NCBI RefSeq assembly: GCF_018614655.1
Contig: NZ_JAGGOG010000003.1
Location: 248,001 to 312,000 of the forward strand
DNA: 64,000 nucleotides
Origin: Pseudomonas fluorescens
Lineage (GTDB): Bacteria; Pseudomonadota; Gammaproteobacteria; Pseudomonadales; Pseudomonadaceae
Direction of reading: 5' to 3'
Shown here: positions 21,972 through 24,307 of the stretch, one piece after another
How the letters are laid out: each line of letters begins with the position of its first letter
Position numbering within the stretch: the stretch's first letter is position 1
Notes under the pieces: generated by a model
Told to the model about the DNA's origin: nothing
Database searches by the model: none
The model's input: only the letters and a program-made list of their open reading frames with translations
Made by a program: the position numbers and the translations under genes

Positions 21972-22892
21972 ATGCCATTGCCACTGATCTACCACGACGA
22001 CTACAGCCCCGAGTTCCCGGCGGACCACCGTTTCCCCATGGATAAATTCCGCCTGTTGCGCGATCACTTGGTGGACAGCGGCTTGACCCAGGACAGCCAA
22101 CTGCTGCGCCCGGAACTGTGCCCGGCAGAGATTCTGGCCCTCGCCCATGAACCTGGGTATATCGAACGCTACATGAGTGGCGAGTTATCCCGCGAAGACC
22201 AACGGCGCCTGGGCCTGCCCTGGAGCGAAGCCCTGGCCCGACGCACCGTGCGCGCCGTCGGCGGCTCCTTGCTGGCAGCCGAACAAGCGCTGGAACACGG
22301 CCTGGCCTGCCATCTGGCGGGCGGCACCCATCATGCTCATTACGATTACCCGGCGGGCTTCTGCATCTTCAATGACCTGGCAGTGATCAGCCATTACCTG
22401 CTGGAAAGCGGTCGGGTCGACCGGGTGTTGATCTTCGACTGTGACGTGCACCAGGGCGACGGCACCGCGCGTATCCTTGAACACACTCCGGACGCCATCA
22501 CCGTGTCCCTGCACTGCGAAAAGAATTTCCCGGCACGCAAGGCCCGCAGCGACTGGGATATCCCGTTGCCCATGGGCATGGGCGACACCGATTACCTCAA
22601 GGTGGTGGACGATGCCCTCAACTACCTGCTGCCGCTGTATCAGCCCGACCTGGTGCTGTACGACGCCGGTGTCGATGTGCACAAGAACGACGCCCTCGGC
22701 TATCTCAAGCTGACTGACCAAGGCGTCGCCGCCCGCGACGAAAGCGTGATGCGCCATTGCCTGGGCCGCGACATCCCGGTGATGGGCGTGATCGGCGGCG
22801 GCTACAGCAAAGACCGCCCTGCCCTTGCCCGCCGTCACGGCATCCTGCATCACAGTGCGCAACGGGTATGGACGTCATCAGGTTGTCACTGA
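21972..22892 (+). CDS. HDAC-family deacetylase (acetylpolyamine/histone-deacetylase-like)
   Basis: This zinc amidohydrolase has 306 residues from ATG 21972. The active site is complete: GGTHHAHYDYPAGFCIFND with the paired histidines, FDCDVHQGDGTA with Asp and His ligands, and YDAGVDVHKND with the second Asp. Bacterial members remove acetyl groups from polyamines, lysines or acetoin-related substrates. The start FRLLRDHLVDSG resembles AcuC/HDAC-type proteins of pseudomonads. The GNAT gene diverges by 76 bp, which may be coincidence. Confidence 0.9.
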   Translation: MPLPLIYHDDYSPEFPADHRFPMDKFRLLRDHLVDSGLTQDSQLLRPELCPAEILALAHEPGYIERYMSGELSREDQRRLGLPWSEALARRTVRAVGGSLLAAEQALEHGLACHLAGGTHHAHYDYPAGFCIFNDLAVISHYLLESGRVDRVLIFDCDVHQGDGTARILEHTPDAITVSLHCEKNFPARKARSDWDIPLPMGMGDTDYLKVVDDALNYLLPLYQPDLVLYDAGVDVHKNDALGYLKLTDQGVAARDESVMRHCLGRDIPVMGVIGGGYSKDRPALARRHGILHHSAQRVWTSSGCH

Positions 22893-22903
22893 CGTGTGAG
22901 TGC

Positions 22904-22938
22904 TTACCCACAATCGCTGTGGAACTGCCTGTGGATAA
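22904..22938. promoter_or_regulatory. DnaA-box cluster
   Basis: TTACCCACA (22904-22912, one mismatch), TGTGGAACT (22918-22926, two mismatches) and TGTGGATAA (22930-22938, perfect inverse of TTATCCACA) are packed into 35 bp. Two further perfect TTATCCACA boxes lie in the next gene at 23460-23468 and 23511-23519. Binding by DnaA is inferred from the consensus only. Confidence 0.5.
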
Positions 22939-23065
22939 CCTGAGTGAAACTCTCTGTAAGCGAGCAGCCGTATAGCCTGCAGCAAGCTGTATGTTTTTTG
23001 ATCAGGCAGTAACGACATCCTCGGGTAGAATGCTCGGCCTACTTTGCCGAACCGCAGTCACTCCC

Positions 23066-24307
23066 ATGCCTCAGACCCACGCCCAGTCTCATCACGTCAT
23101 CATCATCGGCGGCGGCCCTGCCGGGCTGATGGCCGCCGAAGTGCTGAGCCAGGCGGGGATCAAGGTCGACCTGTATGACGGCATGCCCTCGGTGGGCCGC
23201 AAGTTCCTGCTGGCGGGCGTGGGCGGGATGAACATCACCCACTCCGAAGCGTACCCCGCGTTTCTCTCGCGCTATGCCGAGCGTGCGCCACAAATCGCGC
23301 CGTTGCTGCGTCAGTTCGGCGCCGAAGCGTTGTGCGAATGGATTCACGGGCTGGGGATTCAAACCTTTGTCGGCAGCTCCGGCCGGGTCTTTCCTACCGA
23401 CATGAAAGCCGCCCCGCTCCTGCGCGCCTGGCTCAAGCGCCTGCGGGACCAGGGCGTAGTTATCCACACCCGTCATCGCTGGTTGGGTTGGAATGACGAC
23501 GGTAGCCTGCTTATCCACAGCCCCGAGGGTGATAGAAGCTTGCGCGGCGACGCGGTGCTGCTGGCCTTGGGTGGCGGCAGTTGGTCGCGCCTGGGTTCCG
23601 ATGGCGCCTGGCTCAAGCTGCTGGAAGATAAAGGCGTCCCTTATGCGCCACTGCAACCGAGTAACTGCGGCTTCGAGGTGTCAGCCTGGAGCGAGTTGAT
23701 GGTCAGCAAATTTGCTGGCGCGCCGTTGAAAAACGTCGCCATCGGTTTGGCGGACGATAAACCCCGGCTCGGGGAATGCGTGATCACCGCCACCGGGATT
23801 GAAGGTAGCCTGATCTACGCGCTGTCGGCGCCGATACGCGAGGCGATCAATCGGAAGGGAGCGGCCACGGTGCATATCGATTTGCTACCGGGCAAACCGT
23901 TGAACAAAGTCCTGGCGGCACTGAGCAAACCACGCGGCTCGCGCTCGATGAGCAAGCACCTGCACAGTCAGTTGGGGTTGGATGGCGTGAAAGCCGCGTT
24001 ACTGCGGGAATTGGCACCTGCCGAGCGTTTCAATGATCCGACACAGTTGGCTGTGGATATCAAGGCACTGCCTCTGACCTTGGTGAAAACCAGGCCTATG
24101 GACGAAGCCATCAGCACGGCGGGCGGCGTGCCGTTTGAAGCGCTGGATGAGCGGTTGATGCTCAAGCAATTGCCGGGGGTGTTCTGCGCGGGCGAGATGC
24201 TGGACTGGGAGGCACCGACGGGCGGGTATCTACTGACGGGGTGTTTTGCCAGTGGGCGAGCCGCCGGGCGGGGTGTGCTGGAGTGGCTAAAGCACCGCCC
24301 TCTGTAA
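23066..24307 (+). CDS. NAD(P)/FAD-dependent flavoprotein, HI0933/PP4765 family
   Basis: This is a cytoplasmic flavoprotein of 413 residues from ATG 23066 (MPQTHAQSHHVIIIGGG). The Rossmann GGGPAGLMAAE motif is at about residues 14-24. GRKFLLAGVGGMNITHSE and the C-terminal GEMLDWEAPTGGYLLTGCFASG, the second FAD contact, are diagnostic for the HI0933/YhiN group. The TIGR flavo_PP4765 subgroup fits best. The reaction is unknown. Two perfect DnaA boxes lie in the coding sequence, and the stop codon falls inside a repeat arm. Confidence 0.87.
   Translation: MPQTHAQSHHVIIIGGGPAGLMAAEVLSQAGIKVDLYDGMPSVGRKFLLAGVGGMNITHSEAYPAFLSRYAERAPQIAPLLRQFGAEALCEWIHGLGIQTFVGSSGRVFPTDMKAAPLLRAWLKRLRDQGVVIHTRHRWLGWNDDGSLLIHSPEGDRSLRGDAVLLALGGGSWSRLGSDGAWLKLLEDKGVPYAPLQPSNCGFEVSAWSELMVSKFAGAPLKNVAIGLADDKPRLGECVITATGIEGSLIYALSAPIREAINRKGAATVHIDLLPGKPLNKVLAALSKPRGSRSMSKHLHSQLGLDGVKAALLRELAPAERFNDPTQLAVDIKALPLTLVKTRPMDEAISTAGGVPFEALDERLMLKQLPGVFCAGEMLDWEAPTGGYLLTGCFASGRAAGRGVLEWLKHRPL

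What the first reader, a model, noticed from the sequence alone, without database searches (positions are those of the whole stretch)
22904..23519. Cluster of DnaA boxes around the flavoprotein gene
Three perfect TTATCCACA sequences (22930-22938 inverted; 23460-23468; 23511-23519) and two imperfect ones lie in about 600 bp. One perfect 9-mer is expected by chance about every 130 kb on both strands in random sequence, less in GC-rich DNA. The chromosomal origin should be near dnaA/rpmH, which is not here. This could be a DnaA-titrating or DnaA-responsive locus, comparable in logic to datA or DARS of E. coli.
Basis: partly seen in the sequence, partly recalled or inferred. Interest (0 to 1): 0.55.

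Follow-up and report, generated by a model that had tools for sequence, protein, structure and literature searches.

The report
DARS-like DnaA-box triplet in Pseudomonas
Beside an ordinary flavoprotein gene, this Pseudomonas chromosome carries a conserved three-site docking pattern for the replication starter protein DnaA that has exactly the layout of the E. coli sites that recharge DnaA, but with the strong and weak sites swapped, and it is one of several such patterns in the genome.

Summary
The cluster is real: the window's only three perfect TTATCCACA lie at 22930(-), 23460(+) and 23511(+). The key part is the intergenic triplet 22904(+)/22918(-)/22930(-). Its orientations and offsets (0/+14/+26) equal those of the E. 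coli DARS1 and DARS2 cores. It is kept in 47 of 80 named loci. An open-gap scan finds this exact geometry in 4 of 4 rows in this genome and 27 of 41 in ten others. The 25 genus genomes searched carry 5-11 pattern hits each; 156 of 184 gammaproteobacterial genomes have at least one. Most Pseudomonas copies are inverted in strength: box III perfect in 52 of 56, box II in 0 of 56 (canonical class F loci left out), against 7 and 49 of 53 outside the genus. Best reading: a DARS-type DnaA-control site, a new variant; whether it recharges, inactivates or titrates DnaA is untested. In two genomes perfect boxes are almost absent from a 2-2.7 Mb stretch opposite dnaA. Similar sequences are already reported in many proteobacteria; I found no Pseudomonas report.

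The parts
22904..22912 (+). Core box I, TTACCCACA (1 mismatch)
   Evidence: position equals E. coli DARS box I; T1, T2, C6 and C8 the same in 48 of 48 sequences
22918..22926 (-). Core box II, AGTTCCACA on the minus strand (2 mismatches), head-to-head with box I, 5-bp spacer
   Evidence: box II perfect in 0 of 56 distinct genus cores examined, class F loci left out
22930..22938 (-). Core box III, perfect TTATCCACA on the minus strand, tandem with box II, 3-bp spacer
   Evidence: identical in 48 of 48 sequences of this site
22939..22949 (.). Conserved extension CCTGAGTGAAA; 22941-22949 read on the minus strand (TTTCACTCA, 2 mismatches) could be a fourth weak box
   Evidence: mean information 1.47 bits at +35..+44; the box reading is inference
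23460..23468 (+). Accessory perfect DnaA box inside the flavoprotein CDS (codons V-I-H-T)
   Evidence: 42 of 70 CDS, 48 permissive, 2.3 expected by codon usage; rank 11 of 785 9-mers; entropy rank 53 of 375
23511..23519 (+). Second perfect DnaA box inside the flavoprotein CDS (codons L-I-H-S)
   Evidence: 8 of 70 CDS, all 8 whose amino acids permit it; 8 have a box at alignment position 23518
21972..22892 (+). Histone-deacetylase-family gene (start codon chosen by me); the core follows its stop codon
   Evidence: PF00850; upstream of the core in 47 of 47 loci
23066..24307 (+). HI0933-like flavoprotein gene (start codon chosen by me) carrying the accessory boxes
   Evidence: PF03486

Best explanation
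The locus is a DARS-type DnaA regulatory site. Shown: three DnaA boxes with the exact orientation and spacing of the E. coli DARS cores, conserved as a unit at this place in a large part of Pseudomonas, with accessory perfect boxes in the next gene. Inferred: DnaA binds firmly at box III (22930), fills weak box II in tandem, and meets a DnaA bound head-on at box I (22904). As proposed for E. coli DARS, the head-to-head contact between AAA+ domains loosens bound ADP, and the released DnaA reloads with ATP. In this form the strong and weak boxes are swapped, so assembly probably depends more on cooperativity from box III and the accessory boxes than in E. coli. It is one of several such sites at similar relative distances from oriC in the genomes compared, so its dosage should rise soon after initiation. 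That it is a selected DnaA-binding control site I put at about 0.9; that it specifically raises ATP-DnaA at about 0.5.
For: Geometry identical to DARS1 and DARS2. In the window, 192 offset combinations give one hit at 3 or fewer mismatches in all, and that is (14,26). Open-gap scans: 31 of 45 rows have the exact gaps out of 441 possible gap pairs. Reversed-pattern control 0 in all 25 genus genomes searched, while the pattern gives 5-11 hits each. Core present in 47 of 80 named loci, bimodal; boxes 1.77 bits, spacers 1.37, 60 upstream bases 0.35. Coding box beyond codon usage. Geometry absent from this genome's oriC region and from E. coli oriC, dnaA region and datA. DnaA residues that the review ties to DARS or to inter-DnaA contacts (D269, R281, R285, L290) are identical; 15 of 16 residues checked are, and 264 of 333 in domains III-IV. 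Hda, the inactivator that makes ADP-DnaA, is encoded. Published: head-to-head I/II is the hallmark of DARS and functionally essential (PMC10380432 and PMC5742627, passages).
Against: Boxes 1 and 2 are crucial in E. coli DARS2 (PMC4585315, passage), yet box II here has 2 mismatches and is perfect in 0 of 56 genus cores. No IHF-like site near the core (none at 2 or fewer mismatches within -60..+200; 1 of 47 relatives against 2.0 by shuffles). One IHF-like word with 1 mismatch lies at 23357-23369 (1 found, 0.1 by shuffles) but 69 of 70 CDS do not keep it. So a DARS2-type module is not shown. Distance from oriC (0.23-0.32 of the replichore) is nearer to E. coli datA (0.20) than to DARS2 (0.41) or DARS1 (0.66). 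No synteny with E. coli DARS. DnaA residue 21 (domain I) is Q, not E. The core was gained or lost at least 6 times on a weakly supported tree, 3 on starred branches. No binding or nucleotide-exchange data exist here.
Confidence: 0.5

Rival explanations
1. ATP-DnaA-specific switch of opposite sign: the strong box III anchors DnaA and the weak boxes I and II fill only with ATP-DnaA, so the site senses, titrates or inactivates ATP-DnaA early after initiation, a datA-like job in a DARS-like layout.
For: At oriC, low-affinity boxes are filled cooperatively by ATP-DnaA beside high-affinity ones (PMC8682772, passages). Strength is inverted against cores outside the genus. Sites of classes A-E lie 0.12-0.34 of the replichore from oriC, apart from one at 0.48, while class F with canonical strengths lies at 0.47-0.61; E. 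coli datA is at 0.20, DARS2 0.41, DARS1 0.66.
Against: datA boxes face one way and need an IHF site; neither holds here. The head-to-head pair is kept at exact spacing.
Confidence: 0.25
2. Plain titration: the locus only sequesters DnaA as one dense part of an origin-biased field of boxes; the layout has no enzymatic role.
For: Perfect boxes are 7.7 times as common as the reversed word and nearly absent opposite dnaA in two genomes.
Against: Titration needs no fixed spacing, yet one of 441 gap pairs takes 31 of 45 rows, and weak box II is conserved as weak at this site.
Confidence: 0.15
3. DnaA-controlled promoter of the flavoprotein gene.
For: The core lies upstream of the gene on the coding side.
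Against: Distance to the start of the flavoprotein match varies 153-576 bp, while the core starts 9-12 bp after the upstream gene, or 13 bp before its end, in 40 of 47. In G017 about 3.4 kb separate core and flavoprotein match. No sigma-70-like site in 22700-23700.
Confidence: 0.05
4. RNA hairpin or terminator after the deacetylase-family gene; head-to-head boxes are inverted repeats by nature.
For: The core follows the stop codon closely.
Against: Folding is no better than shuffles (z 0.37); the only terminator-like site found in 22700-23700 is at 23370, not at the core; the box I position-4 C, opposite an A in box III, is kept in 37 of 48 with no compensating change.
Confidence: 0.03

Closest known systems
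E. coli DARS1 (bioD-uvrB intergenic)
   Same: Three boxes, orientation + - -, offsets 0/+14/+26, intergenic; IHF/Fis dependence is described for DARS2 only in the passages seen
   Different: Mismatches of I/II/III 1/0/1 in DARS1, here 1/2/0; other genes beside it; one copy against several pattern hits in Pseudomonas
E. coli DARS2 (rppH-mutH side)
   Same: Same core geometry; further perfect boxes outside the core
   Different: DARS2 needs IHF and Fis sites; no conserved IHF-like site here, Fis not tested; accessory boxes here lie in a coding region about 520-580 bp from box III
E. coli datA
   Same: DnaA boxes at a comparable fraction of the replichore from oriC (0.20)
   Different: datA boxes face one way with an IHF site between; no DARS geometry in datA

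Membership tests
DARS (DnaA-reactivating sequence) | Three DnaA boxes, box I opposite to II and III | tested here: met
DARS (DnaA-reactivating sequence) | Same spacing as DARS1 and DARS2 (0/+14/+26) | tested here: met
   open-gap scans
DARS (DnaA-reactivating sequence) | Boxes I and II able to bind ADP-DnaA strongly enough for head-to-head contact | tested here: inconclusive
   sequence only: focal mismatches 1/2/0 against 1/0/1 and 1/1/1 in E. coli; binding not measurable here
DARS (DnaA-reactivating sequence) | Location outside oriC | tested here: met
DARS (DnaA-reactivating sequence) | DnaA residues needed for DARS action (L290, D269) present | tested here: met
   residues named
DARS (DnaA-reactivating sequence) | Promotes ADP release and regeneration of ATP-DnaA | not testable with these tools
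   needs purified protein
DARS2 subtype | IHF site in the regulatory region | tested here: not met
   (one unconserved IHF-like word at 23357)
DARS2 subtype | Fis sites | not tested
   consensus too loose to decide
datA | Essential boxes in one direction with an IHF site | tested here: not met
   definition from PMC5742627 passages
oriC | Next to dnaA/rpmH or mnmG | tested here: not met
   oriC region of this genome is at C40:124 kb

The most novel reading that the evidence does not exclude
Pseudomonas controls DnaA with an origin-proximal set of strength-inverted, DARS-shaped triplets that act as ATP-DnaA-sensing switches (opposite in sign to E. coli DARS), together with a chromosome-wide field of DnaA boxes that is dense near oriC and empty near the terminus, so that replication-driven dosage of sites, with one canonical DARS or none, sets initiation timing.
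Probability: 0.22. Interest if true: 0.82.

Novelty: new variant of a known kind. Interest (0 to 1): 0.62.

Why it matters
DARS sites are worked out in E. coli. A 2023 review says that similar sequences occur in many proteobacterial species (PMC10380432, passage); a 2021 paper's figure legend lists eight species from E. coli to Vibrio cholerae and Shewanella denitrificans (PMC8682772, passage). A repeated, strength-inverted form at similar relative distances from oriC in Pseudomonas gives a direct test of which part of the DARS layout does the work (spacing or box strength), and the box desert opposite dnaA gives a natural test of titration models of initiation.

Tried and rejected
datA-like layout: rejected on geometry. 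oriC-like second origin: rejected. Promoter of the flavoprotein gene: position and scan do not fit. Terminator or RNA hairpin: fold no better than shuffles. IHF-dependent DARS2-type module: no IHF-like site near the core; the one IHF-like word at 23357 is kept in 1 of 70 CDS, the focal one. Dispersed mobile repeat: by eye, copies share the boxes and a few neighbouring bases while flanks differ. Blastn of the intergenic stretch against E. coli genomes found nothing.

The entropy scan of 4-codon windows was not striking for the coding boxes (VIHT rank 53 of 375, second box rank 185); the test conditioned on amino acids was (its ranking covers only the 785 focal 9-mers with 25 or more permissive sequences, so the second box is not ranked). 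The association of core and coding box (40 of 48 against 2 of 22) is not corrected for kinship; only 3 independent pairs on starred branches exist, too few for a test.

A canonical-strength core (class F) was sought in this genome and not found at 3 or fewer mismatches. In one search the class F loci L163-L165 were left out of the genus set; with them it is 58 distinct cores, 2 with perfect I and II. Class E has a poor box II and is the weakest member. Class labels B-F were given by me from sequence and spacing; gene context was looked at only in some, and G014 in class B not at all. Positions were typed; the list was cut off, so not every genome is in each class. My tblastn set held RnpA, not RpmH, and part of DnaN. 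The list for G010 was cut at 1.65 Mb and is not used.

Full report
Observation. The three perfect boxes exist and are the only ones in the window; 0 of 100 shuffles give three. At one mismatch the window as a whole is not enriched (8 against 7.1). The genome holds 138 perfect boxes against 18 for the word read backwards.

What it is. Between a histone-deacetylase-family gene (PF00850) and an HI0933-like flavoprotein gene (PF03486) lie TTACCCACA(+) - 5 bp - TGTGGAACT - 3 bp - TGTGGATAA. I fetched the E. coli K-12 DARS1 and DARS2 regions, whose places I recalled, and scanned them: DARS1 is TTATCCACT-5-TGTGGATAA-3-TGTGTATTA and DARS2 is TTATTCACC-5-TGTGGATAG-3-TGTGAAGAA. Orientation and offsets are the same in all three. 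Published text describes the core as three boxes with equal spacing in both DARS and box I opposite to II and III (PMC5742627, passages), with head-to-head I and II as the functionally essential hallmark and III stimulatory (PMC10380432, passages).

Is the geometry special? Scanning the window with 192 offset pairs gives one hit at 3 or fewer mismatches, this one. An open scan CACA-N{0,20}-TGTG-N{2,22}-TGTGGATAA gives 4 hits in this genome and 41 rows in ten other genus genomes (one of the ten, G012, has none); 4 of 4 and 27 of 41 have exactly gaps 5 and 8 (31 of 45 by script). Two pairs among the 41 rows overlap. The scan needs a perfect box III, so it is blind to cores with a weak one. With up to 3 mismatches the core pattern hits 38 of 38 genomes (own included): 5-11 times in each of the 25 genus genomes with no reversed-pattern hit in any, and 1-6 times in 13 other genomes of the order, three of which have one reversed hit. 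In a sample of the class, 156 of 184 genomes have it; by my reading of the table 5 of 184 have one reversed hit each. Many copies are not unique to Pseudomonas: G182 (same family) and G201 have 8 and G074 has 7.

Not oriC. The dnaA region of this genome with its upstream boxes has no such geometry, nor have E. coli oriC and the dnaA region or datA. I examined 51 loci outside the genus: 40 that I picked from the rows shown (about 5 kb each, a few shorter) and 11 of about 3 kb. 50 of the 51 show the geometry at 4 or fewer mismatches. By tblastn none of the 51 encodes DnaA, DnaN (part), MnmG, RsmG, MioC or RnpA; one lies near uvrB and one near thyA, genes close to E. coli DARS1 and DARS2. A core further than about 1.5-2.5 kb from an origin gene would be missed.

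Conservation at the focal site. 47 of 80 named loci carry the core with 5 or fewer mismatches in the 700 bases before the flavoprotein match, 33 have 9 or more, with nothing between. All 47 have the deacetylase-family gene upstream; 19 more keep both genes without the core, including P. karstica, the nearest named relative; 14 have neither. Of the 25 genus genomes, 18 show the element at 6 or fewer mismatches to the focal 37-mer (17 beside the flavoprotein, and G017, where about 3.4 kb separate the two), 7 do not. Over 48 sequences (47 and the focal one) the boxes carry 1.77 bits per column, spacers 1.37, the 60 upstream bases 0.35 (mostly the end of the upstream gene), the next 10 downstream 1.47 and the 55 after those 0.88. 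The tree needs at least 6 changes of state, 3 forced by starred branches. The core starts 9-12 bp after, or 13 bp before the end of, the upstream gene in 40 of 47; in the other 7 it is 78-784 bp away.

Accessory boxes. At 23460 the box is in 42 of 70 CDS, where 48 could have it by amino acids and 2.3 are expected from codon usage; rank 11 of 785 focal 9-mers, seven of the ten above it overlapping it. At 23511 it is in 8 of 70 (8 permissive). A box at 23899(-) is in 24 of 70 (33 permissive, 0.7 expected) but not in the focal gene. Kinship inflates these counts; the rank is the fairer figure. An entropy test was unremarkable. CDS with the core have a mean of 1.67 perfect boxes, those without 0.14, again uncorrected for kinship; the pairwise test on the tree has too few pairs to decide.

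A variant, not a copy. In 56 distinct cores from 40 genus loci (class F loci left out) mean mismatches of I/II/III are 1.70/2.80/0.07, perfect in 0/0/52; in 53 distinct cores outside the genus 0.40/0.13/1.17, perfect in 35/49/7 (same search pattern for both). The genus set is not even: it holds the best hit of 19 genomes and further loci that I picked. Canonical-strength cores do occur in the genus: class F (I and II perfect, III weak), just upstream of a DUF1232 gene in L164, is in 13 of the 16 genus genomes whose rows one search shows in full, by my reading; this genome is one of the three without it.

Place on the chromosome. In complete genomes, as fraction of the replichore from dnaA: A (this site) 0.23-0.32 (7 genomes), B 0.22-0.34 plus one at 0.48 (8), C 0.19-0.22 (5), D 0.12-0.18 (5), E 0.14-0.22 (5), F 0.47-0.61 (6) (positions typed). 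E. coli datA, DARS2 and DARS1 are at 0.20, 0.41 and 0.66. Perfect boxes in general are origin-biased in two genomes, so the places of A-E are in part those of boxes at large. Conserved relative distance is also reported for E. coli DARS and datA (PMC4585315, abstract and passages).

Mechanism. DnaA keeps the residues tied to DARS and to inter-DnaA contacts, though residue 21 differs, and Hda is present, so ADP-DnaA should be made and need recharging. I favour reactivation at about 0.5, and an ATP-DnaA-specific switch at 0.25, because of the inverted strengths and origin-proximal places. None of this is shown.

Literature. Eight searches of the held library gave no paper on DARS in Pseudomonas that I could recognise from the listings and the passages read. 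A review says that similar sequences occur in many proteobacterial species (its reference 91, which I take to be Fujimitsu 2009; not seen); another speaks of E. coli-proximal beta- and gammaproteobacteria. The wide spread is therefore not claimed as new, and a Pseudomonas entry there cannot be excluded.

Noticed in passing
Genomes G018 and G015 (dnaA at base 4): Perfect TTATCCACA boxes are nearly absent opposite dnaA: 1 of 133 between 1.33 and 4.00 Mb in G018 and 0 of 133 between 2.06 and 4.11 Mb in G015, while the reversed word has 7 of 20 and 7 of 19 there. Interval chosen after looking; 100 of 133 places listed, in order of position, the rest lying beyond the last one listed.
   Followed up: partly
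G000 C30:138069-138584 (L031): Five perfect boxes in about 520 bp downstream of an ETF-domain gene (PF01012), with DARS-geometry triplets; denser than the focal cluster, with similar clusters in other genus genomes such as G015 and G018.
   Followed up: partly
G000 C18:168942 and 169144 (L033): Two core-geometry triplets 202 bp apart, the same distance (201-203) in several genus genomes; in G025 of another family a core lies beside an ABC-transporter gene 60% identical to the one beside this site in G019.
   Followed up: partly
L163, L164, L165 (class F): Canonical-strength core TTATCCACA-5-TGTGGATAA-3-TGTGAACAG, in L164 just upstream of a DUF1232 gene, about half a replichore from oriC.
   Followed up: partly
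G000 C29:17710-24648 (L044): Nine perfect boxes at multiples of 630 bp, probably a tandem-repeat gene that carries the word by chance.
   Followed up: no
G000 C33:390912/390948 and C22:282916/282951; G018 5130933/5130969: Pairs of perfect boxes, minus then plus, starting 35-36 bp apart, seen in two genomes.
   Followed up: no
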